A stretch of 23,243 bases of DNA, from NCBI GenBank assembly GCA_007131945.1, contig SLPP01000019.1:1-23243 (forward strand), given 5' to 3'. Below the pieces are notes generated by a model. That model made no database searches and was not told the DNA's origin. It worked only from the letters and a program-made list of their open reading frames with translations. The number at the start of each line of letters is the position of its first letter. Position 1 is the first letter of the stretch. The stretch is from Paracoccaceae bacterium (GTDB lineage Bacteria > Pseudomonadota > Alphaproteobacteria > Rhodobacterales > Rhodobacteraceae). Of this stretch, positions 1,479 to 15,169 are shown piece by piece. The translations under genes and the position numbers were made by a program.

Positions 1479-1703
1479 TCATTCCTCCCGGCGGTAGTAG
1501 CGGTTCGTGCGGTAGAAGTGTTCAATATGTTCAGTGACGCGGTAGCGTGCGCGGGTGCGCTCGGCCCCGGTCTGCTGCGCCGCGACGGGTCGCGCGCCGC
1601 CCGCGGTCAGCGCGACCGCGCTCGCCGCGCCCAGCGTGGCGCCGAAGAAGGTGCGGCGGTTGATCGGGTTGCCCCGGTCGCCTGCGCCCTGGTCCTGTGC
1701 CAT
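1479..1703 (-). CDS. Small twin-arginine protein of the formate dehydrogenase region
   Basis: A 74-residue protein with a Tat motif (NRRTFFGA, residues 15-22), a hydrophobic segment to about residue 35 and an AAQQ cleavage-like site. A short basic and aromatic tail follows (RYRVTEHIEHFYRTNRYYR). Proteins of this size and motif directly upstream of fdhA are known as the formate dehydrogenase region Tat target family (TIGR02811); their role is unproven, possibly an assembly or export partner. A longer in-frame start at 1757 exists, but the ATG at 1703 has an ideal GGGAGGATCGAC ribosome site and gives the usual family size. It sits 3 bases ahead of fdhA and 50 bases after the torD-like gene, in the same operon. 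Confidence 0.88.
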   Translation of the reverse strand: MAQDQGAGDRGNPINRRTFFGATLGAASAVALTAGGARPVAAQQTGAERTRARYRVTEHIEHFYRTNRYYRREE

Positions 1704-1721
1704 GTCGATCCTCCCAATCTG

Positions 1722-1737
1722 CCGGGCGCGCGCCCGG
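1722..1737. repeat. Perfect 16-bp GC palindrome between torD-like gene and Tat-protein gene
   Basis: CCGGGC-GCGC-GCCCGG reads the same on both strands and would form a 6-bp stem with a 4-base loop in the mRNA, 19 bases upstream of the ATG at 1703. It may be an intercistronic processing or stability hairpin; chance is possible at this GC content. Confidence 0.4.
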
Positions 1738-1753
1738 TATGCTTGCACCATGC

Positions 1754-2359
1754 TCATGCGGCCAGCGCGAAGGCGCGGGCCTCGATATCCACCAGAAGCC
1801 GCCCGATCTCGGCGACCGGACGATAGAAGCGTGCGCTGGGCGCGATCGCCAGATCGTCGAAGAACTGTGCCGCCCAGGGTTCGAGATGACGGCGGAAGAA
1901 GGCCGCCTCCGCCTCGGCACCGACGCCGATCTCGCCCGCGGCCAGATCCGCCATCACCTCGAGGATAAGTGCGATGTGATCCTCGGGCTCGTGGCGGCCC
2001 TTGGCGCGGGCGACGCCCAGACGCGCGAGGTCGCCGCGCAGATCGGCAAGCGGGCGCTCGTTCAGGAAGCCGGTCAGGTAGAAGCTGGCATAGGGCAGCA
2101 ACTCACCCCGGCCGACGCCGATGAAAAGCTCGAAAAATTCACGCTCGACCGCCGCCGGCTCGGCCGCATCGGCCACCTTCGCCAGCGCGCCGTAGGCCTG
2201 GCCCAGCGGTGTCGTGTCGCCCGCCAAAGCGGCGATATCGCGCAGCATGTCCGCCGAGGGTGCGGCCGCCAGAACCCGGCCGAGGAAGCGATACTGCTCG
2301 CTCCGGTACAGTTCGAGATCGTCGCGTGCGCGCCCGTCGCCGGGCTGGCTGGCTTGCAT
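1754..2359 (-). CDS. TorD/DmsD-family molybdoenzyme chaperone
   Basis: A 201-residue, mainly alpha-helical cytoplasmic chaperone of the TorD family. Such proteins bind the Tat signal of molybdoenzymes and hold them until cofactor insertion. Diagnostic stretches are EREFFELFIGVGRGELLPYA, SFYLTGFLNERPLADLR and the conserved EPEDHIALILEVMADL segment. A GTG 12 bases upstream (2371) is in frame, but GAGGTGAACGGACGA places the ribosome site correctly for the ATG at 2359. Its position directly before the small Tat protein and FdhA makes FdhA the obvious client. It is first in the group downstream of the candidate promoter near 2446-2472, so expression may be partly independent of the upstream accessory genes. 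Confidence 0.9.
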   Translation of the reverse strand: MQASQPGDGRARDDLELYRSEQYRFLGRVLAAAPSADMLRDIAALAGDTTPLGQAYGALAKVADAAEPAAVEREFFELFIGVGRGELLPYASFYLTGFLNERPLADLRGDLARLGVARAKGRHEPEDHIALILEVMADLAAGEIGVGAEAEAAFFRRHLEPWAAQFFDDLAIAPSARFYRPVAEIGRLLVDIEARAFALAA

Positions 2360-2444
2360 TCGTCCGTTCACCTCATGGATGCGCTTGGCGCATCCTGCAC
2401 TCCCGTCGGGCGCCTTGTCGGCGCTCCGGTCTTGTTTGGAGTTA

Positions 2445-2472
2445 CCGTATAACGGGCATCACGGTCAGTCAA
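2445..2472 (-). promoter_or_regulatory. Candidate promoter for torD-like gene/fdhA with a dyad over the -10 region
   Basis: On the minus strand TTGACT (2472-2467) lies 15 bases before TATACG (2451-2446), resembling -35 and -10 boxes with short spacing. The -10 lies inside CCGT-TAT-ACGG (2445-2455), a perfect 4-bp dyad, and a second ACCGT/ACGGT pair spans 2444-2465. This looks like an operator-overlapped promoter in the only sizeable gap (146 bases) in the leftward gene string. No regulator can be named. Confidence 0.4.
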
Positions 2473-2505
2473 ATAAACTCGCATCCCATTGCGGGCTTTT
2501 TCCGC

Positions 2506-3150
2506 CTAGCTTGGCCGCGCGCCTCCATGGCGGGGGCGCGGGGCCGGATCGGTGGCCGCATGGCGGTTTTCGCGGGCAGACGCGGGTGGTGGCGCCGTGT
2601 CGGCTGTCTTGGCGGCGCCGGCGGTGCGACAAGATGACGCGACCGACTCGCTGGGCGTCGCGGCCGGTGCGCGGGCGGCGGAGGCAGCGGGGACGCCCGT
2701 CGGCGGCTCGGGTTTCCGGTCGCCGGCGATCTCGCGCACCCATTGCGCCACGCGCTCGGGATCGAGCCTCCCGCCGTCGCCCGGCACACCGCCGGGCGTG
2801 TTCCAATCCCACGCGTAGTCGACCGCGACGTCCTTGTGGTCGCGGATCGCCGGGGTGACCAGCCACATCCGGCGTAGCGCCGCGTTCTTCAGCGCTGCCG
2901 GCACGCCCGGGCGCAGGAAGGCGCGGATGTCACTGCCGGCGGTCAGCGAGTCGACCGGCGGCAGGGCGGCGAGTTCCTCCTCGCTGATCGCTTGCGCCGG
3001 CTCGGCCGTGTCCGGCGCCGCCTGCGGCGCGCTGGCCGGCCCCGGGGCGTCCGGCACTTCGGCTGGCGCCTCGGTGCCGCTGTCCTCGGGCGTCTTGCGC
3101 GCCGCCGCCTTGCGCCCCGCCCAGCGTTCCAGAAAGGGTTTCTCGCTCAT
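2506..3150 (-). CDS. DUF3306 family protein
   Basis: A 214-residue protein of the DUF3306 family. The family N-terminus FLERWAGRKAAARK is at residues 6-19. The conserved core LPPVDSLTAGSDIRAFLRPG with following LKNAALRRMWLVTP occupies about residues 63-100. The region between (20-60) and the C-terminal tail after residue 120 are rich in Pro, Ala and Glu and probably disordered. DUF3306 genes recur in alphaproteobacterial and betaproteobacterial formate dehydrogenase clusters next to DUF3305; the molecular function is unknown. The ATG at 3150 has GGAGGAACCG before it and overlaps the DUF3305 stop by ATGA, so the two are co-translated. An in-frame start at 3174 has no comparable ribosome site. 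Confidence 0.85.
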   Translation of the reverse strand: MSEKPFLERWAGRKAAARKTPEDSGTEAPAEVPDAPGPASAPQAAPDTAEPAQAISEEELAALPPVDSLTAGSDIRAFLRPGVPAALKNAALRRMWLVTPAIRDHKDVAVDYAWDWNTPGGVPGDGGRLDPERVAQWVREIAGDRKPEPPTGVPAASAARAPAATPSESVASSCRTAGAAKTADTAPPPASARENRHAATDPAPRPRHGGARPS

Positions 3151-3677
3151 CGGTTCCTCCGTCCGGCGCCCCATTTCTCATCGGGCTGCAGGATGCGCGG
3201 CGCGCGTGGCGCCATCGCGTTCGGGTCCTGGGGCCTGCGCTTGCGCTTCTTGAACGGGATCTCGACGTGATGCGCCGCTATGAAGGCGGCGACGGCGGAC
3301 TGCACGCCGGCCGGCATCGGCAGCGCCTCGACGATCAGGTCGAGGTCCCCGGCGAGTCCCTCGCCCTCGTAGGGATCGGCGGTGATGCAGGCGATCTCGG
3401 CGCGCTCCGGCGCCCCGCCGCGGATCGCCACCCAGATCGACGGCCGACCCGAGGCGAGGTTGTCGCGGTGATGCCCGGTATCGCCCGACCAGAGCACCAT
3501 CTCGGCCGCGCCCAGATACCAGGTCTCGGCGCCGTTCTCGGCGGCGATCAGGGTATGCGGCGGGGTTGCCGGTTCCTGCGGCAGCACCGCCGAGGGGCGC
3601 AGTTCGCCCGGTCCCCAGCGGGTGACAGGCGGGCGGCGGATCGCCACCACGCCCAGGCGCATCCGTTCCTGCGGCAT
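3147..3677 (-). CDS. DUF3305 family protein
   Basis: A 176-residue protein of the DUF3305 family. The N-terminus has the family pattern (LGVVAIRRPPVTRWGPGELRP) followed by WYLGAAEMVLWSGDTGHHRDNL, then a beta-rich region with PSIWVAIR. The C-terminus is basic (PFKKRKRRPQ). There is no signal peptide or membrane helix. The family co-occurs with DUF3306 in formate dehydrogenase gene clusters, but its job is not established. A TTG at 3692 extends the frame, but GGGAGGACGCG sits just before the ATG at 3677, so this start was chosen. It lies 11 bases after the DUF6352 stop and overlaps DUF3306 by four bases. Confidence 0.85.
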   Translation of the reverse strand: MPQERMRLGVVAIRRPPVTRWGPGELRPSAVLPQEPATPPHTLIAAENGAETWYLGAAEMVLWSGDTGHHRDNLASGRPSIWVAIRGGAPERAEIACITADPYEGEGLAGDLDLIVEALPMPAGVQSAVAAFIAAHHVEIPFKKRKRRPQDPNAMAPRAPRILQPDEKWGAGRRNR

Positions 3678-3688
3678 CGCGTCCTCCC

Positions 3689-4681
3689 TCAATGCACCGG
3701 ATCGCCAGCCTTCAGCGGCAGGCCGGTGACCAGGTTCTGCGGTTTCATCCGGACCCCGCCATCGGCCGCCATCCCGAGGATGAGCCAGACCGGATGGCCG
3801 ACAAGCTCGGGTCGCACCGGGCCGGGGTCGGCGAAGTCGAGCCGGAAGAGGCCCACGAGCGTCTCGCCCGGCGTCTCGTCATGCCAGAGCGCATTGCCGA
3901 TCGCCGTGCCCGCCGGATCGAGCCCGACGAACCAGCGCAGATCGACGTCGTCGGCGCGCAGTTCGGGCGTGACGGTGACCGCGAGCCCCATCATATGGCC
4001 GAGGAACGCCTCGATCGCGCGCGCGAGACCCGCACGCGCGGTCGGATCGCCGCCGAAGTTCAGTACCGTCGTGTGCGCGTCCGAGCGCGACCAGTAGGTC
4101 CATTCGTTGCCGCCGCCGAGCACGTCGAGGCTGTCGATCCCGCCCGAGAACATCGCGGTGAGCGGCGAGGCGTGCATCTCGGCCTCCAGCAGCTGTACCA
4201 GTTCCTCGTCGGCGAGAAGCAGGCGGCCGTCCTTGACCTGGCCGCGTTGCGGGCGGAACATGAGTTCGGCGGCGCGCAGCACCTGCGCGTCCTCGCAACC
4301 CTCGAGCGCGTTGCGCAGGACCAGCTGCACGAGCTGGTTCATGAAGACGACCGGCAGGCGAATTCCTTCGCGGATGATCGAAAGATAGCCCTCCTCGATC
4401 GTCCCGGCGCGCAGCAGCCGGTCGCGCAGGGTCAGCAGGAAGCCCCAGTTCTCGCGCGCGTCCGGATCGGCGAGCGCGGCGAGTTCCGGATGACTGACCG
4501 GCGCGCGCGGCGCCTGCATCAGCCGCGCATGCAACGCGCGTTCGGCGGCGCAGGCTTCGGGCGGGGGCAGGACCTCGGGGCGGGCGAGCCAGGCCAGAAG
4601 CAACTCGTCGGTGACGCGCATCCGGCCGCGCGCGTCGAGCCGGGTCAGGTGGTGGCCGCTGGCAACCCAGAATTCAGGCAT
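3689..4681 (-). CDS. DUF6352 family protein
   Basis: A 330-residue protein beginning MPEFWVASGHHLTRLD. It matches what I know of the DUF6352 family, soluble proteins encoded in molybdenum-dependent formate dehydrogenase loci. Visible landmarks are DELLLAWLARPEVLPPPEAC near residues 25-44, an HPELAALADPDARENW segment, AMFSGGIDSLDVLGGGNEWTYWSRSDAHTT around residue 180-210, and a C-terminal KPQNLVTGLPL. There is no Tat or Sec signal and no obvious catalytic motif, so the role is unknown. Its start overlaps the end of the DUF6505 gene by 8 bases, indicating coupling. The family name is from memory and would need a profile search to confirm. Confidence 0.8.
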   Translation of the reverse strand: MPEFWVASGHHLTRLDARGRMRVTDELLLAWLARPEVLPPPEACAAERALHARLMQAPRAPVSHPELAALADPDARENWGFLLTLRDRLLRAGTIEEGYLSIIREGIRLPVVFMNQLVQLVLRNALEGCEDAQVLRAAELMFRPQRGQVKDGRLLLADEELVQLLEAEMHASPLTAMFSGGIDSLDVLGGGNEWTYWSRSDAHTTVLNFGGDPTARAGLARAIEAFLGHMMGLAVTVTPELRADDVDLRWFVGLDPAGTAIGNALWHDETPGETLVGLFRLDFADPGPVRPELVGHPVWLILGMAADGGVRMKPQNLVTGLPLKAGDPVH

Positions 4682-5228
4682 CGCGCTCTCCGCGCAGGGC
4701 GATCAGGTCGACGCCATGATCCTCCTCTTCCTCGAAGAAGTCGAAGGCGCGGTCGTGGCCCTGCAGGTAGCCCGCGCCGAAGGCGGTGTCCTGGCGCGGG
4801 CGAAGCGTGCGGAACTGCTCGCGGATCTCGCCCGCTTCCTGCCGGCGGTGGAGCGCGATCAGCGTGTTCGGCGCGTGGTCCCGGCAGAGGCTTTCGGCGA
4901 GCGCGATCTCTTCCTCGGCCGCGGGCGCGGCGGTGGCGAGATCGGGTGCGCCGAGATGGGTCACAAGCCCGCGCGCCAGCGCCGCGACCGCCTGCGCGCG
5001 CTCTGCCGGTGTCGCCTCCTGGACCACCACGAGCGTCGAGTGGCCGAAGCTCTCGACCCCCAGGAAGCCCGAGCGGAAGGCGATCTGTTCCTTCCGGCCC
5101 AGGCTCCCGGCCGGCCGGCCCCAGAAGAGGAACGTCCCCGGCACCGCCCATTCGCCGGGCTCGGCGGCACGCGCGAAGACCACCGCGTCCGAGGGGTCGA
5201 GCCGGATCGTGCGCGGCAACAGTGTCAC
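4674..5228 (-). CDS. DUF6505 family protein
   Basis: A 184-residue protein starting at a GTG (VTLLPRTIRLDPSDAVVFARAA) that overlaps the preceding stop as GTGA. Family-like stretches are EPGEWAVPGTFLFWG (residues about 23-37), AFRSGFLGVESFGHSTLVVV and a C-terminal acidic FDFFEEEEDHGVDLIALRG. This fits DUF6505, another small family confined to formate dehydrogenase accessory clusters, as far as I can recall. No catalytic residues can be assigned. The gene overlaps both neighbours (4 bases upstream, 8 bases downstream), so it is translated as part of a tight cassette. A longer frame to 5696 exists but would overlap nearly all of the ligase gene and is not credible. Confidence 0.78.
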   Translation of the reverse strand: MTLLPRTIRLDPSDAVVFARAAEPGEWAVPGTFLFWGRPAGSLGRKEQIAFRSGFLGVESFGHSTLVVVQEATPAERAQAVAALARGLVTHLGAPDLATAAPAAEEEIALAESLCRDHAPNTLIALHRRQEAGEIREQFRTLRPRQDTAFGAGYLQGHDRAFDFFEEEEDHGVDLIALRGERDA

Positions 5229-5941
5229 AGCTTCGGCCCCGCCGCGTCGCGCCAGCCGCTTGCGCCGAGCGCCTCCATCAGCGGCGGCAGGCGGCGGTTG
5301 CCAGAGGGCGTGATCTCGACCAGCCGGTCGCCCTCGATCCGGCGCACGCCGCGCAGGAGCGGCGGATCGATCCGCATCAGGTAACGATTGGTCACAGCCT
5401 CGAGCCCCTCGTGCGCCCAGCGGTCGAAATAGAGCATCATGTAGGAGGCGAAGGTCGAGACGATCTCCTCGGCCGGATCGAAGACCTCTTCCTTCAGCGA
5501 GGTCGATCCGGGGAAGCGGCCGGGCTCTTCCAGGTGGTCGCGATCGGCGATCAGTTCGACGGCGTAGACCATCCAGTCGGGTACGTCCTGCGGCCCGGTG
5601 CCAGGCGCCACGGCGAAGCGCGCGCCGCCGATTCGCGCCTTGTCGTAGCGGATCTCGTCGGGCCAGGTGATGCGGATCGGGCGCTCGGGCGGGCAATGCG
5701 CGGCCATCGCGTCGGTCAGCGCCGCCATCCCCAGAAGGAAGGCCATCTGCGCGGTTTCCAGCGGCGCCTCGGGTTCCAGCACCACCGCGAAGGCCAGAAT
5801 CCCCGGCGCCTCGCGCAGCACCAGCGTCCCGGCACCGTCCTCGGGCGCGCGGCGCGCGGCCTCGGCCAGCACGTCGTCTTCCGCGCCGCGAAACAGCGTG
5901 TAGGGCGGCGGCAGGGCGATCGCGCCCGCGGCTTCCAGCAT
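5225..5941 (-). CDS. Biotin/lipoate protein ligase-like protein (DUF4444 type)
   Basis: A 238-residue protein with a divergent biotin/lipoate ligase core. ITWPDEIRYDKARIGG at residues 91-106 corresponds to the KWPNDI...KIGG signature of BirA/LplA folds, with K101 in the place of the conserved lysine region. The C-terminal part (about residues 165-230, EEIVSTFASYMMLYFDRWAHEG onward) matches the DUF4444 extension. It is the first gene of the leftward cassette, with a strong GGGAGGAACCGG site before the ATG at 5941. Whether it ligates lipoate or biotin, or has been recruited as a non-catalytic assembly factor for the dehydrogenase, cannot be told. Its stop overlaps the GTG start of the DUF6505 gene. 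Confidence 0.8.
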   Translation of the reverse strand: MLEAAGAIALPPPYTLFRGAEDDVLAEAARRAPEDGAGTLVLREAPGILAFAVVLEPEAPLETAQMAFLLGMAALTDAMAAHCPPERPIRITWPDEIRYDKARIGGARFAVAPGTGPQDVPDWMVYAVELIADRDHLEEPGRFPGSTSLKEEVFDPAEEIVSTFASYMMLYFDRWAHEGLEAVTNRYLMRIDPPLLRGVRRIEGDRLVEITPSGNRRLPPLMEALGASGWRDAAGPKL

Positions 5942-6063
5942 CCGGTTCCTCCCGTCTTCGCGGCGCCCGGGTCGCGCAACCGTGGGTTTGCGACGACTAC
6001 CCTTCCCGGGGTCGCGGGGTTATATCGCGCAAGATAATGCCACGTTCCAGCCGGGGAAAGCCC
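5942..6063. promoter_or_regulatory. Divergent promoter region of the formate dehydrogenase accessory genes
   Basis: A 122-base gap separates the leftward ligase gene from the rightward Fe-S protein and must contain at least one promoter in each direction. The only A/T-rich patch is 6019-6036 (TTATATCGCGCAAGATAA), an imperfect dyad with TTAT/ATAA ends. GATAAT at 6031-6036 could be a -10 for the rightward gene, but no good -35 is seen. No FNR, NtrC/sigma-54 or other named site is convincing. Confidence 0.4.
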
Positions 6064-8028
6064 ATGCCCGAATCCGCGCGCACCGTCCTGACATGCAGCT
6101 GCGAGGGCACGATGCCTCTCGACGGCAAGGCACTGGCGACTGCGGGGGCCGAGGGGCGGTCGGCGCATCAGCTCTGCCGGGCGCAGCTGGAGAATTTTCG
6201 CGCCGCGCTGGGGCGGTTCGCCGAGGTGACGGTGACCTGCACGCAGGAGGCGCCGCTCTTCGCCGAGGTCGCCGAGGAGGCGGGCTTCTCCGGGCGGCTG
6301 TCCTTCGTCAACATACGCGAGACGGCGGGCTGGTCCGAGGCGGGGGCAGCGGCCGGGCCGAAGATGGCCGCGCTCATCGCCATGGCCGGGGTCGAGCCCG
6401 CGCCGTTCGAACTCGTGAGCCTCGAAAGCGAGGGCGTGACGCTGGTGCTCGGCCGCGGCGAGGAGGCGATGGAGGCCGCGCGCACGCTCGCCGAGACGCT
6501 CGACATCACGCTCCTGCTCGTGCCCGGCGCCGAGGCGATGCCGCCGCGGCGCACGGTCTTTCCGGTGCTGCAGGGGCGGATCCGCAAGGCGCGGGGGCAT
6601 CTGGGGGCGTTCGAACTCACCGTCGACGACTATGCCGCGCCCGCGCCCTCGTCCCGCAGCCGGCTCGAATTCGAGGCGGCGCGCGACGGGGCGGTGTCGC
6701 GCTGCGACCTGGTGCTCGACCTGACGGGCAACCCGCCGCTCTTTCCGGCGGCCGAGTTGCGGCCGGGCTACCTGCGCGCCGACCCGCGCGATCCGGCGGC
6801 GGTGGCGCGCTTGGTGGCGCGGGCGCAGGGCATGATCGGCACCTTCGACAAGCCGAAGTTCATCGATTTCCGCGCCGATCTCTGCGCCCATTCGCGCAAC
6901 CGGATCACCGGCTGTACGCGCTGCCTCGGGCTCTGCCCGACCGGCGCGATCGAGCCCGCGGGCGACAGCGTGGCGATCGACCCGAATATCTGCGCCGGCT
7001 GCGGGCAATGCGCTGCCGCCTGTCCGACGGGGGCCGCCGCCTACGCGCTGCCGCAGGTCGAGGCGCTGGCCCGGTCGCTGCGCGCCGGGCTGCGCGCCTG
7101 GTTCGCGGCCGGGGGGCAGGCGGCGCCGGTGATCCTCCTGCACGACGAGGGGCATGGCGGCGCGCTGATCGACGCCTCGTCAAGGATGGGCCGGGGCCTG
7201 CCCGCGCATGTCATCCCGGTCCAGGTCAACGAACCCGGCCAGGTCGGGCCCGAGATCATGGCCGCGGCGCTCGCCTGGGGGGCGGGGGCGGTGCGGGTGC
7301 TGACCCGGGCGCGGCCGGCGCATCCGCTCGACGGGCTCGACGAGACGCTGGCGCTGATGGAGGTGATCGGCGCCGCGACCGGCCATCCGGAGGAGACCTG
7401 CGCGCTGATCCAGACCGACGATCCCGAGGCGCTGGAGACCGCGCTCTGGACGAAGCCCGCCGCTGCCCGCGCCGCGCGGTCCTCGTTCCTGCCGCCGGCG
7501 GACAAGCGCGGGCTCCTGACGCTCGCCATGGCCGAGATGAACCGCGCCGCGCCCGAGCCGGCCGAGCGCGTCGCGCTGCCCGAGGGCGCGCCCTTCGGCG
7601 CGGTGGCGCTGGATCGCGACGCCTGCACGCTCTGCCTGGCCTGCGTCAGCGCCTGTCCGGCGGGGGCGCTCGGCGACAATCCCGACCGGCCGATGCTGCG
7701 CTTCACCGAGCAGGCCTGCGTGCAGTGCGGGCTCTGCGCCGCGACCTGCCCCGAGGACGCGATCACGCTCGTCCCGCGCATCGACTTCGCCGAATGGGAG
7801 ACGCCGAAGCGGGTGCTGAACGAGGACGAACCCTTCGCCTGCACCGGCTGCGGCAAGCCCTTCGGCGCGCGGGCGTCGATCGAGCGGGTCACGGCGAAGC
7901 TGGAAGGCCACTGGATGTTCTCGGGACCCGAGGGGGCGAAGCGGCGCGAGCTTCTCACGCTCTGCGACGACTGCCGCACGCAGCGGGTGGTGATCGAGGG
8001 GTTCGACCCGCACGAGAAGATCGGCTGA
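6064..8028 (+). CDS. Multi-cluster 4Fe-4S protein with HdrA/MvhD-like segments
   Basis: A 654-residue soluble iron-sulfur protein with no signal or membrane segment. The N-terminus has TCSCEGTM (C11, C13), LC38 and TC59 in an HdrA-like arrangement. Then come C274-x9-C284-x2-C287-x3-C291P and a full ferredoxin motif C310/313/316/320. A domain at about 350-480 (VILLHDEGHGGALIDASSRM) resembles MvhD/Hdr partner domains without their cysteines. It is followed by two more ferredoxin motifs (C521/524/527/531; C552/555/558/562). The end has a CxxC (593/596) and CxxC (634/637) pair suggesting a zinc ribbon or rubredoxin-like site. GGGGAAAG before the ATG at 6064 favours this start over 6037. Similar proteins are encoded beside formate dehydrogenase genes. 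It probably carries electrons for that enzyme or its assembly, but the partner is inferred only from location. Confidence 0.85.
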   Translation: MPESARTVLTCSCEGTMPLDGKALATAGAEGRSAHQLCRAQLENFRAALGRFAEVTVTCTQEAPLFAEVAEEAGFSGRLSFVNIRETAGWSEAGAAAGPKMAALIAMAGVEPAPFELVSLESEGVTLVLGRGEEAMEAARTLAETLDITLLLVPGAEAMPPRRTVFPVLQGRIRKARGHLGAFELTVDDYAAPAPSSRSRLEFEAARDGAVSRCDLVLDLTGNPPLFPAAELRPGYLRADPRDPAAVARLVARAQGMIGTFDKPKFIDFRADLCAHSRNRITGCTRCLGLCPTGAIEPAGDSVAIDPNICAGCGQCAAACPTGAAAYALPQVEALARSLRAGLRAWFAAGGQAAPVILLHDEGHGGALIDASSRMGRGLPAHVIPVQVNEPGQVGPEIMAAALAWGAGAVRVLTRARPAHPLDGLDETLALMEVIGAATGHPEETCALIQTDDPEALETALWTKPAAARAARSSFLPPADKRGLLTLAMAEMNRAAPEPAERVALPEGAPFGAVALDRDACTLCLACVSACPAGALGDNPDRPMLRFTEQACVQCGLCAATCPEDAITLVPRIDFAEWETPKRVLNEDEPFACTGCGKPFGARASIERVTAKLEGHWMFSGPEGAKRRELLTLCDDCRTQRVVIEGFDPHEKIG

Positions 8029-8257: not shown

Positions 8258-8662
8258 TCAGTGCTCGTGCGGGCCCAGCCGGCGGTGGAGCCGGGCGTCG
8301 TGGACGCGGAAGTGATCGGCGAACCAGGCCTCGAGCGTGCGGGTCAGGTGCTCGGCGGCCGTTTCGGGCTGGGCCGGGGCCTCGTCCATCAGGTCGCGCA
8401 ACTCGTCGAGGAGGCGCTCGTGATCGGTCTTGTGCGGGCCGAGCTGGTCGTAGCGGGCATTGCGCATCTGCTCTTCCTCGAGCGCGAAATGCGCCGAGAT
8501 GGCGCGGAAGAGGTCGCCGAAGGCGCGGTCGATATCGGTCTCGGGCCGCCGGTCGAGGATGGCCTCGGCAGCGGTATTGACCAGCTCGACGAGTTCCTGG
8601 TGCTCGTGGTCGATCGCCGGGTCGCCGACGCTGTATTCGGGCTTCCATTCGATCGGGGGCAT
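8258..8662 (-). CDS. Bacteriohemerythrin (di-iron O2/NO-binding protein)
   Basis: A 134-residue single-domain hemerythrin. All the usual di-iron ligands can be placed: H21 (IDHEHQEL), H58 and E62 (HFALEEEQM), H77 and H81 (HKTDHERLL), H117 and D122 (HFRVHD). The N-terminal WKPEYSVG matches the family start. There is no signal peptide, so it is cytoplasmic. Hemerythrins bind O2 and some bind NO; in this operon it could deliver, buffer or sense one of these gases. It is the last gene, 9 bases after the preceding stop, with GAGGAATCTCC before the ATG. A terminator follows at once. Confidence in fold is high; the ligand is inferred from context. Confidence 0.93.
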   Translation of the reverse strand: MPPIEWKPEYSVGDPAIDHEHQELVELVNTAAEAILDRRPETDIDRAFGDLFRAISAHFALEEEQMRNARYDQLGPHKTDHERLLDELRDLMDEAPAQPETAAEHLTRTLEAWFADHFRVHDARLHRRLGPHEH

Positions 8663-8671
8663 GGAGATTCC

Positions 8672-9193
8672 TCAGTGAAAGACGAACTCGCCGGTGGCGC
8701 TGCGGAAGTCTATCGCAAGGTTCTGGCCGGGTTCCAGCACCACCTGCCGGTTGTGTTCATGGCTGAACCCCGCGGTAAGCGGATCGTCGCGCAACCGCAG
8801 CGCGACGTGGTAGCTGCCCGCCGGCAGCACCAGCCGCTTGTAGGCGCGCGACGGCCCGCTGCCGGCAAGGCCCGTCGGCGGCAGGTCGGCCGCGACGACC
8901 GGGGCGCCGTCGATGTCCATCTCGACCCGGACCGGCGCGCGGCGGCGCTCGCAGACCTGCGGCGTGCGCATGTTGGGCGGCAGCGCGGCCAGTTCCTCGG
9001 GCGTGCGGTCGCGGCAGACGCGGCCGCCGGGATGGGTGAAGCTGAGCCGGATCAGCCCGGCATCCTCGGGCACCGACTGCCATTCCGGCCAGTAGGACAG
9101 GACCGCCGTCGCCGCGCTCAGCGCCAGGGTGGCGATGCCGCCCATCACCAGGTGCCGGCCGCGCCCGGCGAGGCCCTGCAGCGCGCGCCTCAT
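8672..9193 (-). CDS. Unrecognised membrane-anchored periplasmic protein of the oxidase/NOR-like operon
   Basis: A 173-residue protein I do not recognise. It has a basic N-terminus (MRRALQGLAGRGRH), one hydrophobic helix at about residues 15-34, and then a probable periplasmic domain. Visible features are SYWPEWQSVPEDAG after the helix, two cysteines (C60 in GGRVCRDRTPEEL, C81 in PQVCERRRAPVRV), and a beta-rich C-terminal half (YKRLVLPAGSYHVALRLRDD) ending VLEPGQNLAIDF. The overall plan recalls small oxidase-assembly proteins such as FixH or CtaG, without clear similarity. The ATG overlaps the stop of the cytochrome b fusion gene as ATGA and has no separate ribosome site, so it is coupled to it. 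It is probably an assembly factor or accessory subunit; this is inference from neighbours only. Confidence 0.8.
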   Translation of the reverse strand: MRRALQGLAGRGRHLVMGGIATLALSAATAVLSYWPEWQSVPEDAGLIRLSFTHPGGRVCRDRTPEELAALPPNMRTPQVCERRRAPVRVEMDIDGAPVVAADLPPTGLAGSGPSRAYKRLVLPAGSYHVALRLRDDPLTAGFSHEHNRQVVLEPGQNLAIDFRSATGEFVFH

Positions 9194-10806
9194 TTCGCCA
9201 CCACCTGCGCCCGCGCCACCGCCTGCGCCACCGCCCGCGCCTCGGCCGCCTCCTCGGCGCCCAGCGGGCGCAGCTTCTCGTAGGGTGCCATCGCGGCCAG
9301 ACGCTCGGCGAAGGCGGCGAGTTCCATCTGCAGGCGCAAGGGCTCGCTGGGGCCGGCCCAGACGGTCAGCAGCCGTTCGCGCGGTACCCGTTCGCGCAGG
9401 AGCGGGTCGCGGGTGCGGGCGATGCGCTGCTGCATCCAGTCGACGCCGAAGCGGTGCTGGCACTCGCGCTCGGCGCAGCCCGAGATGCAGACCCCGTCGG
9501 CGAGGCCCCGGCTGATGATGTAGTCGATGATCGAGGGCGGCGGCATCGCCGCGCAGGGCACGAGCACCCGGCCCGGCGGGACCGGGCCGGCATCCTCGCC
9601 GCCCGCGCCATGCGCGCAGGCGAGGGTGAGGATGCGGCCCCCGCCCTCGGGCAGCGCCTCGGCCGCGGCGATGACATCGGCGCGCAGCCGCGCGAAGGGG
9701 TAGTCGGGCAGGTCGATCCCGGTCTTCAGGTCGCCCGAGGTGCGGAAGGGCGTCGAGGCGGGGCAGGAGCCCATGCAGATGCCGCAGGCGACGCAGCGCG
9801 CCGGATTGACCTTGACCTCGCGCGGATAGGGCAGCCCGTCGCTGCGCGGCTCGATCGTGATCGCGGCATAGGGGCAGTCGTTTGCACAGCGCATGCAGCC
9901 GTTGCAGCGCGGCAGGTAGACCTCGGCGGCGGCGGCCTCGGCGCGCGGCGGCAGCCAGGGCAGGCCGATCATCACGACGGTGAAGAGCCCGACGCCGGCC
10001 CAGATGATCCCCGGCGGCACGATCTCGATCACCGGGTAGAGCGGCAGGTAGAACCAGTCGATCCCCACCCGCTGCGGCACGAGCGACAGGTCCGCCGGCC
10101 CCTGCGAGACCGCCGGGATGGCGTAGGAGACGACGACGAGCGCAACCAGCGTGATCAGTGCCAGGCCGAACGGCGGGTTGGTGCGCGCGTCGGTGATCCG
10201 CTGGGTGTGGATCCACATTACCAGCAGAAGCAGGAGCGGGATCGCGATATGCAGGAACACCATCAGCGTGAAGAAGCGGCTCGACAGGTTCGCCGGCGAC
10301 AGGAAGTTGCGCGCGATCGGCTCGGCGAAGATGCCGAGCGCGTCGAGAAGCTCGGTCGAGGTGATGGCGACGTATTGCGCCAGCTGGTCCCAGACCAGCC
10401 AGTAGCCGGTGATCCCCGAGAGGTAGACGAACCAGATGATCGGCACGCCGGTGACCCAGGAGAACCAGCGCTTGCCGCGATAGCGGTCGCGCGCCCATTC
10501 GCGCACGAGATGCAGGAACATCACCAGCACCATCAGGTCCGAGGCATAGCGGTGCAGGCTGCGCGAGAGCCCGGCATGCCACCACAGGTCGTGGGTGATC
10601 CACTCGACCGATTCGTAGGAGGCATGCACCCCGGTATCCCAGAAGATGAAGAGGTAGATGCCGCTGACCACGACGATCCAGAACAGGAACCAGCCGAGCG
10701 GGCCGAGATTGGCGAGCGGGTTCCAGTCGTGACCGAAGAGCCGGTCAAGGCCGCGCTCGGCCCGGTCGAAACCGCGCCGCAGGGTCGTGCGGAGGCCGGC
10801 CATCAT
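9190..10806 (-). CDS. Fusion: di-heme cytochrome b + two [4Fe-4S] + MvhD-like domain
   Basis: A 538-residue membrane protein with three modules. Residues 1-290 form a cytochrome b N-terminal-type domain. H85/H99 (SLHRYASDLMVLVMFLH) and H186/H200 (FLHIAIPLLLLLVMWIH), each pair 14 apart as in cytochrome bc complexes, should bind two b hemes, and further helices follow near 215-232 and 262-284. Residues 295-355 hold two ferredoxin clusters: C301/304/307/311 and C338/341/344/348. Residues 390-510 resemble the delta subunit of methyl-viologen-reducing hydrogenase (MvhD), with C397, C418, C440, C444 and C449. It could pass electrons between a soluble donor and the membrane. The start codon overlaps the SCO stop; two adjacent ATGs (10806 and 10803) are possible. 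Module assignments are firm; direction of electron flow and partner are inferred. Confidence 0.9.
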   Translation of the reverse strand: MMAGLRTTLRRGFDRAERGLDRLFGHDWNPLANLGPLGWFLFWIVVVSGIYLFIFWDTGVHASYESVEWITHDLWWHAGLSRSLHRYASDLMVLVMFLHLVREWARDRYRGKRWFSWVTGVPIIWFVYLSGITGYWLVWDQLAQYVAITSTELLDALGIFAEPIARNFLSPANLSSRFFTLMVFLHIAIPLLLLLVMWIHTQRITDARTNPPFGLALITLVALVVVSYAIPAVSQGPADLSLVPQRVGIDWFYLPLYPVIEIVPPGIIWAGVGLFTVVMIGLPWLPPRAEAAAAEVYLPRCNGCMRCANDCPYAAITIEPRSDGLPYPREVKVNPARCVACGICMGSCPASTPFRTSGDLKTGIDLPDYPFARLRADVIAAAEALPEGGGRILTLACAHGAGGEDAGPVPPGRVLVPCAAMPPPSIIDYIISRGLADGVCISGCAERECQHRFGVDWMQQRIARTRDPLLRERVPRERLLTVWAGPSEPLRLQMELAAFAERLAAMAPYEKLRPLGAEEAAEARAVAQAVARAQVVAK

Positions 10807-11642
10807 CCGGCCTCGCGGCCCTGTCCGGGGGGGGCAGCGAGCCGGCGCATCGCGCGGCGATGGGCGATCACCATGCGCACGAGGATCGCGGCGAAGATCA
10901 GCAGCGACAGCCCGCCGAAGAAGATGCCGAAGAAGATGCCGTAGTCGAAGCGATAGGCGCCGGTCAGCGGGTTGTAGGTGGTGCAGATGAAGGCGACGCG
11001 GTCCCACAGGTCGGCGGGCGCGAGCGAGCGGGTACGGGTGCCGAAGACGAGATCCTTCATCGGCTCCATGAAGACCGGCAGCGGGAAGGTCTCGCCGTAG
11101 ACCTGGCGGTAGACGGTGCCGTCGGCGTCGAGGATCGAGGTCTGCATCACATGGTCGAACCCGCCCGCCGCGGCGCGGAAGGAGAAGCCCAGATCCTCGA
11201 GGAAGGCGGCGGTGGTGGCGTCGTCGGCGCTGGCGATGTGCCAGCCGTCGACGGCGAGGATCCGGTGGGTATTGGCGAAGGCCTGCAGCTGCGCCGGGCG
11301 GTCGCCGCGGGCATCGAAGCCGAAGGTGAGCACGTTGAACCGCCCGGTGCCCAGCGCCCGCTGCGCCTCGATCACCGCGTCGCGCAGATGGCCGGTGGTG
11401 ACCGGGCAGACGGTCGAGCAGCTGGTGAAGATCAGCGAGACGACGAGCGGCTTGCCGCGCAGGTCGGAAAGCGAGAGCGGGGCGCCGGTATGGTCGATCA
11501 GCACATGCGCGCCGACCTGCCGGCCGATCGCGGCCTGGCTTTCCTCGAAGGCGATCTGCGCGTCGATCCGGGCGGTCTGCGCCGCGGCCGGCACGCCCAG
11601 CGCCAGGGTCACGGAGAGGAGAAGGAAACGCAGCAGGATCAT
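10803..11642 (-). CDS. SCO1/SenC-family copper chaperone with C-terminal TM helix
   Basis: A 279-residue protein of the SCO/PrrC family, which delivers copper to, or reduces, the CuA site of oxidase subunit II. A cleavable-looking signal (residues 1-21, ending VPAAAQ) precedes a thioredoxin-like domain. The CxxxC metal site is C75/C79 (FTSCSTVCP) and the third ligand is H164 (GFDHVMQTS). Unlike most SCO proteins it carries an extra hydrophobic helix at about 235-260 (FFGIFFGGLSLLIFAAILVR) and a basic cytoplasmic tail, so it would be anchored at its C-terminus. The start overlaps the ctaB stop by ATGA and lacks its own clear ribosome site. A CuA subunit encoded four genes downstream in the sequence listing but upstream in the transcript is its natural client. 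Confidence 0.93.
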   Translation of the reverse strand: MILLRFLLLSVTLALGVPAAAQTARIDAQIAFEESQAAIGRQVGAHVLIDHTGAPLSLSDLRGKPLVVSLIFTSCSTVCPVTTGHLRDAVIEAQRALGTGRFNVLTFGFDARGDRPAQLQAFANTHRILAVDGWHIASADDATTAAFLEDLGFSFRAAAGGFDHVMQTSILDADGTVYRQVYGETFPLPVFMEPMKDLVFGTRTRSLAPADLWDRVAFICTTYNPLTGAYRFDYGIFFGIFFGGLSLLIFAAILVRMVIAHRRAMRRLAAPPGQGREAG

Positions 11643-12523
11643 GCCAGCAACCGGTCGAACGCGCCCTGCAGGATGACCCCGGTCGCCAGCGCGGCGAAAT
11701 GCACCAGCGAGGCGCGGAAACAGGCCATCGCCGTGCGCTTGCCGGGCGCGCGCATCAGCGCCCAGGCGGCGATCAGGAACCAGGCGCCCGCGGCGAGGGC
11801 GAAGATCCCGTAGATCCAGCCGAGCCCCAGCGCCAGCGGCAGGAGCGACAGCCCGACCAGCGCCGCGACATGCAGGAAGATCGTCGGCCCCCAGACCTCG
11901 GGCTCGGTGACGACGGGCAGCATCGGGATGCCGGCGCGGCGGTAGTCCTCGCCCCGCGCGGCTGCGAGCGCCCAGAAATGCGGCGGTGTCCAGAGGAAGA
12001 GGACGCCGGCGAGGACCAGCGCCTCGGGGCTGATCACCGGCCCGACCGGATCGGCCGCGGCCGCCGCCCCGGCGAGCAGCGCGAATGAGCCCGCCGCGCC
12101 GCCGATCACCACGTTCCAGACCGTCCGCCGCTTGAGCCAGACGGTGTAGACCAGCGCGTAGGTCAGCGAGCCGAGGAAGACGAGGACGGTGGCCAGCGTG
12201 CCGCCGACCGACCAGGCCATCAGCAGCGAGGCGGCGAGCAGCGCGCTGAAGGTCACCGGCCAGACCGGCCCCGCCTTCAGCCGGCCGCTGGCGAAGGGGC
12301 GGTTGAAGGTGCGCGCCATCAGCCGGTCGGTGTCGCGCTCGAGATACTGGTTGAAGGCCCCCGCCGCGCCCGAGGCGCCGAGCACGGCGAGGGTGAAGAC
12401 CGCCGCCTCCAGCGCCCCCATCGGGCCGCCCGCGACCAGGATCCCGACCAGCGCGGCCAGCGCCACGAAGGAGCCGATGCGCAGCTTCAGGATCGAGGCG
12501 GTCATGGTCAGGGCAGCTTGCAT
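11639..12523 (-). CDS. ctaB: Protoheme IX farnesyltransferase (heme O synthase)
   Basis: A 294-residue polytopic UbiA-family prenyltransferase that converts heme B to heme O with farnesyl diphosphate. The two Asp-rich substrate motifs are seen: NQYLERDTDRLMART near residues 58-72, and the second loop around YTVWLKRRTVWNVVIGG. The family signature WTPPHFWALA lies near residue 178. Length and the roughly eight to nine membrane helices match CtaB/CyoE. It starts at ATG 12523 after AAGGAAAGCGCGCCC, 37 bases after the subunit I stop, and overlaps the SCO start. No heme A synthase (CtaA) is in the window, so the enzyme encoded upstream may use heme O, or heme A if ctaA lies elsewhere. Confidence 0.95.
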   Translation of the reverse strand: MQAALTMTASILKLRIGSFVALAALVGILVAGGPMGALEAAVFTLAVLGASGAAGAFNQYLERDTDRLMARTFNRPFASGRLKAGPVWPVTFSALLAASLLMAWSVGGTLATVLVFLGSLTYALVYTVWLKRRTVWNVVIGGAAGSFALLAGAAAAADPVGPVISPEALVLAGVLFLWTPPHFWALAAARGEDYRRAGIPMLPVVTEPEVWGPTIFLHVAALVGLSLLPLALGLGWIYGIFALAAGAWFLIAAWALMRAPGKRTAMACFRASLVHFAALATGVILQGAFDRLLA

Positions 12524-12560: not shown

Positions 12561-14291
12561 TCAGCGGAGCAGCCAGAGTTCCGACAGGTACATCCAGTTG
12601 ACGAAGTAGTAGAGCACGAAGGCGGTGAAGAAGATCGCCACCAGGATGATCGTGCCCGGCAGCTTCAGCGTCGCGTGGCTGCCATAGGTCGCGACCGATT
12701 CGCGGCTGCGGTCGTGCAGCGGGAAGGTCAGCTTCGCGTCCGGCCCGTCGAGCTTGCGCCCGAAGAGGATCGAGGCGACGACGATGATCACGAAGAGCGC
12801 GCCGCCGATGCTGGCGAGAACGCCGAAGATCCCGTTGAGCGCCATCATCAGATAGGCCGCCGGCGGGTATTCGAAGGCATGCACCGCGTCGGTCAGCGCC
12901 AGGTCCCAGTGCCGGCGCGAGACGCCGAGCGTGCCCGCTCCCATCATGAAGAGCGAGATGCCGCCGGCGCCGATGCCGAAGAGATAGGGCTGCCACTTGG
13001 CCAGCGTCGGCCAGACGATGTCGCGCCCGAAGAAGAGCGGCACCAGGATATAGGTCGCGGCCATGAAGGCCAGCGTCGTGCCGGCGACGACCGTTCCGTG
13101 GAAATGGCCCGGCACGTAGAGGGTGTTGTGCATCAGGATGTTCAGCTGCTCGGTGCCGAGGATCACGCCGGTGATCCCGCCGATGAAGCCGAACATGACG
13201 AGCGACATGAACATCCCCGAGAAGGCCGGGTTGCCCCAGGGCGCCTTGGTCAGCCATTCGAAGGCGCCGCGGGTGTAGCCGTTGCGCCGCTGCGCCGCCT
13301 CGATCGCGCCGGGAACCGTCAGGCCGTGGATCATCGAGCCGAGCACGGCAAGATACATCATGTAGGAGGTGTTGACGATCTTCCAGGTCTCGCTCAGCCC
13401 CGGTTCGGCCAGAAGATGGTGCGCCGAGGCGAGCTGCAGGAACAGGATGTACATGAAGAAGGCCATGCGGCTGACCTTTTCCGACAGCGGCTTGGCGCCC
13501 AGCACCATCGCCGCGATCGCGTACCAGATCGCCACATGCGCCGAGACGTTGATCTGCTGGCTGGAATGGCCGAAGCCCCACCAGACGAGCTTGTACATCA
13601 GGCTGTCGATCTCGCTGATTAGGCCCAGCGACCAGAGCCAGGTCGGGATCAGGATGATCGCGCCCGAGGCGATGGTGAAGACGGCGATGATCGCCGCGGT
13701 GATCGCGCCGAAGGTCACCAGCGGCACCGAGCCCTCGTAGGTGCCCTCTTCCTTGGCGACGACCAGCGTGGCGAAGAAGCAGCAGACGGCGACCAGCGCG
13801 CCCACCGCGAAGAGGATGAGCGAGAGGTAGAACCAGTGCGAGGCCATCATCGGCGGGTAGGAGGTGAACATCACCGAGCTGTCGCCGCGCAGCACCGCGT
13901 AGTTGGCCATCAGCGCGCCGACGATCATCAGCGCGAAGCCGAGCCAGGCGAATTTCGGCGCCGCCAGCCGCGTGTTCAGCAGGACCGCGGCGGCGAAGTA
14001 GAGCACCGCGACCTCGAAGAAGATGATCCAGAAGACCAGCACGTTGGCGCCGTGGCCGGTCAGCACCAGGTAGAAGAGTTCGGCATCCAGCAGCTGGATC
14101 GCCGGCCAGCGCGTCAGCGCCACCAGCAGCCCCAGGAGCCCGCCCCAGGCCAGGAACACCACCGCCGCCACCGCGTTGACGCGGATCAGGATCTCGGCGT
14201 TGCGCTCGATCTTCAACCCGGTGAAGCGGCAGGTGCGATATTCGGCCTGCACGCCGCTGCCGGCATAGGTGCCCTCGTTCACTGCGGTCAT
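12561..14291 (-). CDS. Heme-copper oxidase superfamily subunit I, probably a non-canonical nitric oxide reductase
   Basis: A 576-residue polytopic protein with about 12 helices and the six invariant histidines of the heme-copper superfamily: H80 and H398 (low-spin heme), H396 (high-spin heme), and H242, H291, H292 (the CuB/FeB site). Oxygen reductases of types A and B have HPEVY or similar at the first CuB ligand, with a Tyr cross-linked to His. Here the motif is GHSSQQINV, so the +4 position is Q246. In cNOR that position is the FeB-ligating Glu. The stretch aligning with the K-channel helix reads VPGAIEAA, with Glu where PTGIK has Lys. Together these point to NO reduction rather than proton-pumping O2 reduction, in the manner of the recently proposed CuA-containing NOR families. 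GAGGGGACGCC precedes the ATG at 14291. Superfamily membership is certain; the NOR reading is inference. Confidence 0.9.
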   Translation of the reverse strand: MTAVNEGTYAGSGVQAEYRTCRFTGLKIERNAEILIRVNAVAAVVFLAWGGLLGLLVALTRWPAIQLLDAELFYLVLTGHGANVLVFWIIFFEVAVLYFAAAVLLNTRLAAPKFAWLGFALMIVGALMANYAVLRGDSSVMFTSYPPMMASHWFYLSLILFAVGALVAVCCFFATLVVAKEEGTYEGSVPLVTFGAITAAIIAVFTIASGAIILIPTWLWSLGLISEIDSLMYKLVWWGFGHSSQQINVSAHVAIWYAIAAMVLGAKPLSEKVSRMAFFMYILFLQLASAHHLLAEPGLSETWKIVNTSYMMYLAVLGSMIHGLTVPGAIEAAQRRNGYTRGAFEWLTKAPWGNPAFSGMFMSLVMFGFIGGITGVILGTEQLNILMHNTLYVPGHFHGTVVAGTTLAFMAATYILVPLFFGRDIVWPTLAKWQPYLFGIGAGGISLFMMGAGTLGVSRRHWDLALTDAVHAFEYPPAAYLMMALNGIFGVLASIGGALFVIIVVASILFGRKLDGPDAKLTFPLHDRSRESVATYGSHATLKLPGTIILVAIFFTAFVLYYFVNWMYLSELWLLR

Positions 14292-14404: not shown

Positions 14405-14959
14405 TCAGTCGACCACGCGGATACGGCCGGTCATGTTGTGATGGCCGATGCCGCAGTATTCGTTGCAGATGACCCCGAAATCGCCCGTCTCGGTCGGGGT
14501 GATGTTGATCACGTGCATGTAGCCCGGATGGACCGAGATGTTGATGTTGGTGGGCTGGATCGACAGGCCGTGCTGCCAGTCCGCCGAGGAGAGGTGCAGC
14601 CGGTAGCTCTGCCCCTTCTGCAGCTCGAGGATCGGCCAGAATTCCCACAGCCGGGCGAGGTAGTAGGCATCGCCCCCCGCCGGCGGGCGCACCACCGGCA
14701 CGCCGTTCTCGAAGACCGGCTCGCCGTTCTCGTCGACGACCTGGTATTCGTCGGCGAAGGCCTCGACCTTGTCGGCGAAGCGCCAGGGCTGGATGCGGTA
14801 GGTCTCGGTCGACAGATTCTGCTGCCCGATGAAGTGCCAGGCGATCATGAAGAAGAACATGAACAGCCCCCAGAGGAAGGCGATGATCACCCAGCCCAGC
14901 TCGATGCCGTGGATGGGCTCCTTCCACCAGAGGCGGTTTTCCGGAGGTGTGATGGCCAT
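14405..14959 (-). CDS. CuA-containing heme-copper oxidase subunit II
   Basis: A 184-residue protein with a single N-terminal membrane helix (about residues 21-43, LGWVIIAFLWGLFMFFFMIA) and a periplasmic cupredoxin domain. The complete CuA site is present: H130 (DWQHGLSI), then C165, E167, C169, H173 and M176 in CNEYCGIGHHNM. It therefore accepts electrons from a periplasmic donor such as cytochrome c and passes them to subunit I. One helix rather than two, and the short length, resemble B-family (ba3-type) subunit II. An acidic insertion lies at about 63-98. The ATG at 14959 has a GAGGG site and is 27 bases after the small TM gene. No cytochrome c domain is fused and none is encoded nearby. 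Confidence 0.94.
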   Translation of the reverse strand: MAITPPENRLWWKEPIHGIELGWVIIAFLWGLFMFFFMIAWHFIGQQNLSTETYRIQPWRFADKVEAFADEYQVVDENGEPVFENGVPVVRPPAGGDAYYLARLWEFWPILELQKGQSYRLHLSSADWQHGLSIQPTNINISVHPGYMHVINITPTETGDFGVICNEYCGIGHHNMTGRIRVVD

Positions 14960-14986: not shown

Positions 14987-15169
14987 TCAGTCGGCGATCG
15001 GAACGGAAACGACCTCCATCACCCCCCATACCGTGTAGAGCACGGTCGGAATGGCGATGCCGAGGAAGAGAAGCAGGAACGGATTGTCGAGGATCCGCTG
15101 CATGGCCGGGATCTGCGCACGGCCGGGCGCGGCCGGTTTCTTGTCCGTGTCGGTCGTCTGGTCGCTCAT
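14987..15169 (-). CDS. Small single-TM protein, probable third subunit of the oxidase/NOR-like complex
   Basis: A 60-residue protein: a hydrophilic N-terminus (MSDQTTDTDKKPAAPGRAQ), then one membrane helix at about residues 33-55 (FLLLFLGIAIPTVLYTVWGV). The ATG at 15169 is preceded by AGGAGAGCGAC; an in-frame upstream start at 15238 lacks support. It is the first gene of the operon, 27 bases before the CuA subunit. Small one-helix subunits are common in B-type and cbb3-type heme-copper complexes (for example CbaD, CcoQ/CcoH-like), which suggests a structural role, but I cannot assign a named family. Confidence 0.8.
   Translation of the reverse strand: MSDQTTDTDKKPAAPGRAQIPAMQRILDNPFLLLFLGIAIPTVLYTVWGVMEVVSVPIAD

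What the first reader, a model, noticed from the sequence alone, without database searches (positions are those of the whole stretch)
12561..14291. Heme-copper subunit I with Gln in place of the active-site Tyr: a likely non-canonical nitric oxide reductase
All six metal/heme histidines are kept (H80, H242, H291, H292, H396, H398), but the helix that normally carries HPEVY reads GHSSQQ, putting Q246 where oxygen reductases have the cross-linked Tyr and cNOR has an FeB-ligating Glu. The K-channel-like stretch has Glu (VPGAIEAA) instead of Lys. With a CuA subunit beside it, this does not fit cNOR or qNOR, nor an ordinary oxidase. It may belong to one of the extra NOR families proposed in the superfamily (eNOR, bNOR, sNOR, gNOR, nNOR) or be a new branch; I cannot recall the exact ligand set of each family.
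Basis: partly seen in the sequence, partly recalled or inferred. Interest (0 to 1): 0.85.

Follow-up and report, generated by a model that had tools for sequence, protein, structure and literature searches.

The report
eNOR-type nitric oxide reductase operon
The gene looks like an oxygen-using enzyme but belongs to a known family, eNOR, that reduces nitric oxide to nitrous oxide; the enzyme is ordinary for its family, while the membrane electron-carrier gene that travels with it deserves study.

Summary
In detail: on the minus strand at 12561-14291 lies a 576-residue heme-copper subunit I with all six metal/heme histidines and Gln246 where O2 reductases carry the cross-linked Tyr. One detail is wrong: the Glu in VPGAIEAA is not at the K-channel lysine place. 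That place is His322; the Glu (E331) aligns with a Glu that ba3 oxidases also have.

It is a member of the published eNOR family. Gln246 and the six His are kept in 116 of 116 relatives fetched; subunit II has a complete CuA site; the Gln rows form one clade beside the B-type Tyr rows. Cytochrome d1-domain proteins (NirS kin) occur in 27 of 31 eNOR-bearing and 27 of 367 other Pseudomonadota genomes. The host genome holds NirS and NosZ on other contigs and shows no cNOR, qNOR or NirK, but no NirJ either.

The less expected part is downstream: a cytochrome b/[4Fe-4S]/FlpD fusion and a 173-residue membrane-anchored protein of no known family. Both are in 30 of 31 eNOR-bearing and 3 of 49 eNOR-lacking genomes tested. 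I propose that this module feeds electrons to, or matures, proteobacterial eNOR; which of the two is inferred.

The parts
12561..14291 (-). eNOR subunit I, 576 aa: six His ligands, Gln246 at the Tyr site, His322 at the K-channel Lys site
14405..14959 (-). subunit II, 184 aa, N-terminal membrane helix (by eye) and CuA domain; H130, C165, C169, H173, M176 in 134 of 134 and E167 in 133 of 134 aligned sequences (some are overlapping fetches of one place)
   Evidence: ligand roles recalled from ba3 oxidase
14987..15169 (-). 60-aa single-helix protein in the place of ba3 subunit IIa; found in 72 of 74 loci of at least 9 kb
   Evidence: role inferred from position
11639..12523 (-). heme O synthase (CyoE/CtaB), over the TIGR01473 cut-off
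10803..11642 (-). SCO1/SenC-family protein (copper chaperone) with a C-terminal hydrophobic stretch seen by eye
9190..10806 (-). cytochrome b (two H-x13-H pairs) fused to a two-[4Fe-4S] ferredoxin domain and an FlpD/MvhD domain, 538 aa
8672..9193 (-). 173-aa protein of no known family: one helix and a beta-sandwich (AlphaFold2 pLDDT 94.7), two Cys invariant in 41 of 41 aligned rows
8258..8662 (-). bacteriohemerythrin, last gene of the operon

Best explanation
This is the operon of an eNOR-type nitric oxide reductase. Shown by sequence: a B-type-like heme-copper subunit I with six His ligands and Gln in place of the cross-linking Tyr; a CuA subunit II; a single-helix subunit; heme O synthase and SCO, whose families serve heme and copper assembly. 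Inferred from the family: electrons enter at CuA from a periplasmic carrier, pass the low-spin heme (H80/H398) to the heme-metal centre (heme on H396; metal on H242, H291, H292), and there two NO are coupled to N2O and water; without the Tyr the site is not fitted for full O2 reduction. Inferred from genome patterns: it removes NO made by cd1 nitrite reductase in the same or neighbouring cells. The cytochrome b/[4Fe-4S]/FlpD protein and the 173-aa protein are near-obligate companions in Pseudomonadota (shown by presence and absence), most likely a membrane electron-transfer module that links a cytoplasmic donor or the quinone pool to eNOR, or keeps its metal site reduced during assembly (inferred).
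For: Gln246 and six His identical in 116 of 116 loci; Gln also in Thermus thermophilus pTF24b and Thermomicrobium roseum. PMC8756737: Gln marks eNOR (passages). PMC8879329: alphaproteobacterial 'ba3-a1' is eNOR and would serve as NOR beside cd1 Nir and NosZ in a MAG printed as SIO54-bin61 (passages); my locus L058 bears the isolate name SI054_bin61 and its subunit I is 66% identical. PMC6431628: the ba3-a1 of Magnetospirilli lacks the Tyr and has SCO in its operon (passages); L054 (Paramagnetospirillum) is in the clade. Clade: SH-aLRT 99 for Gln rows, 97 for B-type Tyr rows. CuA ligands complete. Cytochrome d1 protein in 27 of 31 eNOR+ against 27 of 367 eNOR- genomes (Fisher p 8e-23); in Rhodobacteraceae 6 of 8 against 32 of 190 (p 7e-4). 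Of the 32 genomes with both (G000 counted once), at least 12 have them on one contig within 10 kb (distances). Own genome: NirS, NosZ 1104 bits, other HCOs two aa3-like and one cbb3. Module: 30 of 31 against 3 of 49.
Against: No activity was or could be measured. No eNOR of proven activity (recalled: Rhodothermus marinus) was in my tree; the family link rests on the Gln rule and on names in papers. The window itself holds no nir or nos gene found here; the host's NirS and NosZ are on other contigs. The host genome (92% complete) and G436 (100% complete), which has nirS 2.0 kb from eNOR, show no NirJ over the cut-off and one strong d1-domain hit each, so their NirS may lack its cofactor. Two of the 8 eNOR-bearing Rhodobacteraceae (G477, G543) and four of 31 in the phylum sample (G129, G136, G201, G227) have no strong d1 hit. 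Genomes are related, so the Fisher values overstate. The 17.7-kb Thermus and Thermomicrobium eNOR loci show no cytochrome b module, so not all eNORs have it beside them.
Confidence: 0.88

Rival explanations
1. It is an O2 reductase of the B type that has replaced the Tyr but still respires oxygen, perhaps at low O2 or with a radical stored elsewhere.
For: Six His, CuA and single-helix subunit are those of ba3 oxidases; best solved relatives by sequence are ba3 oxidases. Databases name relatives cbb3-type or cytochrome c oxidase.
Against: Tyr absent in 116 of 116 relatives, no Tyr at the C-type site; association with cytochrome d1 proteins; eNOR described as a characterised NOR (PMC11388526, passages). 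The host already has two aa3-like and one cbb3 oxidases.
Confidence: 0.07
2. It reduces NO, but only to detoxify NO from outside or from leaks, not as a step of the cell's own denitrification.
For: No NirJ over cut-off and a single strong d1-domain protein in the host and in G436; hemerythrin at the operon end; 4 of 31 and 2 of 8 eNOR genomes have no strong d1 hit.
Against: NosZ in the host; eNOR on the same contig as d1 genes and a NirJ over the cut-off in G366, G018 and G534.
Confidence: 0.3
3. The cytochrome b/FeS/FlpD protein and the 173-aa protein are assembly factors: they supply electrons that reduce copper or the heme-metal site while eNOR is built, in the way proposed for CcoG or NosR (recalled), and do not carry respiratory electrons. 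This is compatible with the main explanation and rivals only its electron-supply reading.
For: They follow heme O synthase and SCO in the operon; the 173-aa protein has one predicted N-terminal helix and two invariant Cys; presence follows eNOR, not NirS.
Against: Cytochrome b keeps both heme pairs and a D-W motif near the place of the PEWY quinol site of bc1 (comparison recalled); not seen beside eNOR of Thermus and Thermomicrobium.
Confidence: 0.4

Closest known systems
eNOR family (Hemp and Gennis; Murali et al. 2024, both recalled or cited at second hand; 'ba3-a1' of PMC6431628 and PMC8879329)
   Same: Gln at the Tyr site, six His, CuA subunit II, B-family kinship, SCO in the operon, denitrifying company
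   Different: Nothing found that sets subunit I apart; it is one more alphaproteobacterial member. The cytochrome b module is not mentioned in the passages I read
B-type ba3 O2 reductase (Thermus thermophilus 4gp4, Aquifex aeolicus 7deg)
   Same: Heme and metal ligands, CuA, single-helix subunit, S319 and T325 at ba3 S309 and T315 (numbers counted by hand), E331
   Different: Gln246 for Tyr, His322 for the K-channel Thr/Lys, E93, N248, Y281, and nearly always Q286; separate clade
cNOR and qNOR
   Same: Predicted reaction, 2 NO to N2O
   Different: Their site residue is Glu, not Gln (Table A4 of PMC8756737); cNOR has a heme c subunit where this has CuA
sNOR and gNOR
   Same: NORs with a cupredoxin subunit II
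   Different: Site residue Asn or Asp, not Gln (Table A4 of PMC8756737)

Membership tests
eNOR | Gln at the position of the cross-linked Tyr | tested here: met
   Q246, 116 of 116 relatives; rule from PMC8756737
eNOR | six metal/heme His of the heme-copper superfamily | tested here: met
eNOR | cupredoxin (CuA) subunit II, no heme c | tested here: met
   14405-14959; ligands kept in 134 of 134
eNOR | clade apart from B-type O2 reductases, with published members | tested here: met
   52 rows, quick tree; L054 in the tree; L058 by isolate name and 66% identity only; no enzyme of proven activity in it
eNOR | one proton channel predicted | tested here: inconclusive
   S319 and T325 kept, H322 at the Lys/Thr place; no model
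eNOR | NO reductase activity | not testable with these tools
   needs enzyme
B-type O2 reductase | Tyr four residues after the first CuB His | tested here: not met
   Gln
C-type O2 reductase | Tyr on helix VII, six residues before HH | tested here: not met
   Leu285
cNOR/qNOR | Glu at the site; heme c or quinol-oxidising architecture | tested here: not met
   Gln; CuA subunit
sNOR/gNOR | Asn or Asp at the site | tested here: not met
   Gln
bNOR (CuANOR) | Asn at the site by Table A4 of PMC8756737 | tested here: not met
   Gln

The most novel reading that the evidence does not exclude
Proteobacterial eNOR does not work alone: it has an almost obligate membrane partner, a two-heme cytochrome b fused to a two-cluster ferredoxin and an FlpD (MvhD-like) domain, with a 173-aa membrane-anchored protein of a new family. 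The module would be a new kind of electron-transfer complex that ties a cytoplasmic low-potential donor or the quinone pool to NO reduction.
Probability: 0.4. Interest if true: 0.65.

Novelty: new member of a known kind. Interest (0 to 1): 0.4.

Why it matters
Where sources name close relatives, they name them cytochrome c oxidases, so surveys that count NOR genes by cNOR and qNOR can miss N2O-forming organisms such as this one, in which no cNOR or qNOR was found. If the cytochrome b/FeS/FlpD module is the electron path, it would explain how a CuA-type NOR is fed in Pseudomonadota and make the question of energy conservation by eNOR directly testable.

Tried and rejected
Rejected: 'Glu in place of the K-channel Lys' (register error). 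Rejected: a Tyr supplied by helix VII as in C-type oxidases (Leu285). Rejected: a second NOR hidden in the genome; the fifth, weak COX1 hit (L116, 18.9 bits, under the cut-off) lies in a membrane protein of about 140 residues. Considered and dropped: dependence of the cytochrome b module on NirS; 24 of the 27 d1-bearing eNOR-lacking genomes have no module.

Led nowhere: Murali et al. 2024 is not held, so what it says of operons is unknown to me. A structure of subunit I could not be made and the fold of the 173-aa model could not be compared; by sequence the 173-aa family has no solved relative better than E 0.19 and no Pfam or PHROG match. The six haloarchaeal plasmid genes that I read proved to be Tyr-type oxidases. 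Nine searches of papers (listings, and passages of nine papers opened) showed me no text on the module beside eNOR; the nearest is a table row in PMC8756737 that names one protein with cytochrome b6, DMSOR-beta and FlpD domains. This is open-licence text only and no proof that it is unpublished.

Full report
WHAT IS THERE. Window 12561-14291, minus strand, is one open frame of 576 aa, PF00115 COX1 at 212 bits; the best solved relatives by sequence are B-type oxidases, 7deg and the Thermus ba3 entries. The helix reads GHSSQQ against GHPVVY/GHPIVY in the two ba3 rows, GHPEVY in both aa3-like rows of this genome and GHNAVG in its cbb3.

THE K-CHANNEL REMARK. In the alignment the aa3 sequence VPTGIK lies on GSMIH, so the lysine place is His322. 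Counting from the HH pair of Thermus ba3 (done by hand), S319, H322 and T325 stand at ba3 S309, T312 and T315. E331 of VPGAIEAA lies on the Glu of ba3 AASLEF and ATSLEY. It is shared with O2 reductases and is no substitute for Lys. His322 is the real departure: it is identical in 116 of 116 relatives.

FAMILY. A tblastn alignment of P0001 with 116 loci (L003-L031, L032-L111, L140-L146) shows the six His, Q246, E93, L285, H322 and E331 in all 116. These loci were found by likeness to eNOR, and two patterns hold FFE and VPGHFH, so E93, H396 and H398 are partly built in for the 80 loci of that call. An earlier motif-based reading gave 100 readable frames of 109 (L003-L111), all 100 with Gln and six His; nine were missed by the motif filter. 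Two distant plasmid genes, Thermus thermophilus pTF24b (47%) and Thermomicrobium roseum (45%), also read QQ. The tree of 52 rows (quick IQ-TREE, SH-aLRT only) puts the 33 rows labelled eNOR on one side of a branch with support 99 and the 12 B-type Tyr rows on another with 97; two further Gln rows (L102, L110) were left unlabelled by my name filter and fall inside the eNOR clade. The program warned of long branches: the join of Thermus with Thermomicrobium and the order of the outgroups (own cbb3, Azospirillum, the Asn-type enzyme) are unsure.

LITERATURE (passages seen, not whole papers). PMC8756737 uses the conserved Gln to define eNOR, lists Q for eNOR, Y for O2 reductases, E for cNOR and qNOR, N for sNOR and CuANOR, D for gNOR, and finds eNOR in Alpha-, Beta-, Gamma- and Deltaproteobacteria. 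PMC11388526 says that cNOR, qNOR, bNOR and eNOR have been biochemically characterised and that the last two are related to B-family oxidases. PMC6431628 notes that the 'ba3-a1' of Magnetospirilli has SCO in its operon and lacks the catalytic Tyr. PMC8879329 equates ba3-a1 with eNOR and says that two MAGs with cd1 Nir and NosZ would use it as NOR, one of them printed SIO54-bin61; my locus L058 has the isolate name SI054_bin61 and 66% identity. Murali et al. 2024 is not held; that its enzyme came from Rhodothermus marinus is recalled.

SUBUNIT II AND OPERON. The CuA set H130, C165, C169, H173, M176 is kept in 134 of 134 aligned sequences and E167 in 133 (some are overlapping fetches of one place). 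In order on the minus strand follow heme O synthase, SCO, the cytochrome b fusion, a 173-aa protein and a bacteriohemerythrin. The same genes in the same order lie on a Defluviimonas plasmid. All 8 eNOR loci of the Rhodobacteraceae sample, the window's included, have every operon gene that I looked for (G534 is split over two fetched stretches). In 74 loci of at least 9 kb (72 from Pseudomonadota, plus Thermus and Thermomicrobium) tblastn found subunit I 74, subunit II 74, small subunit 72, SCO 70, cytochrome b 69, FeS 64, FlpD 63, 173-aa protein 63, heme O synthase 45, hemerythrin 42 (some loci end at contig ends, and hits to common families may lie apart from the operon). Cytochrome b and FeS are in one frame in 56 of the 64 loci of L032-L111 where both were found.

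NIRS LINK. In 398 Pseudomonadota genomes, 35 match P0001 at E 1e-20. Thirty-one are eNOR-like (51% identity or more; one, G227, is only a 91-residue piece); the other four are at 27-30% and their motifs were not read. With a limit of 1e-50, which I set after seeing the table, a cytochrome d1-domain protein (NirS, NirF or NirN; not told apart) is in 27 of 31 eNOR-bearing and 27 of 367 other genomes (p 8e-23). NirK over its cut-off is in 0 of 31 and 55 of 367 (p 0.013). The 31 fall into 12 families; in 11 of them at least one eNOR genome has d1 (counted by hand). In Rhodobacteraceae (198 genomes) eNOR is in 8, d1 at E 1e-40 in 38, both in 6 (p 7e-4); the host is in both samples. Of the 32 different genomes with both, at least 12 have a d1 gene within 10 kb of eNOR on one contig, 1.0 to 9.2 kb away; contigs are short and the lists were cut, so this is a lower bound. 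T. thermophilus pTF24b has nirS about 3.6 kb from its subunit I. Kinship among genomes makes the p values too small.

THE HOST. It has NirS with cytochrome c and d1 domains (L131), NosZ at 1104 bits, over its cut-off, two oxidases closest to CtaD/CoxA (cut pieces, under that model's cut-off), one CcoN over its cut-off, eNOR, and no other COX1 match over the cut-off. No NirK match was found in it. Against a full pathway of its own: NirJ is not found over its cut-off in it or in G436 (9 of the 15 genomes of that call have one), and each has one strong d1 match only. The host assembly is 92% complete, G436 100%. So its NirS may be idle or may use a cofactor made otherwise.

THE MODULE. The fusion keeps four His in two H-x13-H pairs (78-79 of 81), eight ferredoxin Cys and four FlpD Cys (66 of 81 or more), and D258-W259 (78 of 81; numbers of the 546-residue frame). 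Its parts resemble cytochrome b6, NuoI and MvhD. In 80 genomes (all 31 eNOR-bearing, all 27 d1-bearing eNOR-lacking, 22 of the 112 others that I had first listed) the fusion and the 173-aa protein were each found in 30 of 31 and 3 of 49, in the same genomes (p 2e-17). The three, G121, G137 and G145, belong to genera that hold eNOR in other sampled genomes; two are 77-82% complete, G145 is 96% complete in 730 contigs, so a missed eNOR is possible but not shown. The exception among eNOR-bearing genomes is G069, whose eNOR contig ends 2.6 kb on. In at least G045, G073, G153 and G181 the pair lies beside a d1 gene on another contig than eNOR. So the module follows eNOR in presence and may sit in either cluster. 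The 173-aa protein was modelled with mean pLDDT 94.7 as a helix of 33 residues and a beta-sandwich. What the module does is inference.

VERDICT. The partner module is the part that merits work.

Noticed in passing
L118 7983-9668 (Thermus thermophilus pTF24b): This eNOR copy reads VVGHFK where the other eNOR rows that I aligned keep HFH, so a low-spin heme ligand looks replaced by Lys.
   Followed up: no
L148 2401-3855 (G436, Rhodobacteraceae): A second heme-copper subunit I with Asn at the Tyr site (GHTFIN), sNOR-like by that residue, lies with its own COX2-type subunit II, a following gene that looks SCO-like by eye (no domain search run), and an Rrf2 regulator a few kb from nirS and eNOR.
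   Followed up: partly
L131 9240-11219 (own genome C35) and L148 6467-8689 (G436): NirS genes in genomes where no NirJ passes its cut-off and only one strong d1-domain protein is found: possibly orphan cd1 nitrite reductases.
   Followed up: partly
L113 1501-2838 (own genome C232): One of the two aa3-like oxidases reads VPTAVQ where the K-channel Lys is expected.
   Followed up: no
window 1-8028: Next to the operon, a TorD-type chaperone (1754-2371) and a polyferredoxin (6037-8028); the stretch looks like a formate dehydrogenase cluster (that name is recalled, not tested).
   Followed up: no
L117 (Defluviimonas sp. SAOS-178_SWC plasmid, 164.7 kb): The whole eNOR operon lies on a plasmid, which may help to explain its patchy spread in Rhodobacteraceae (8 of 198 genomes).
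   Followed up: no
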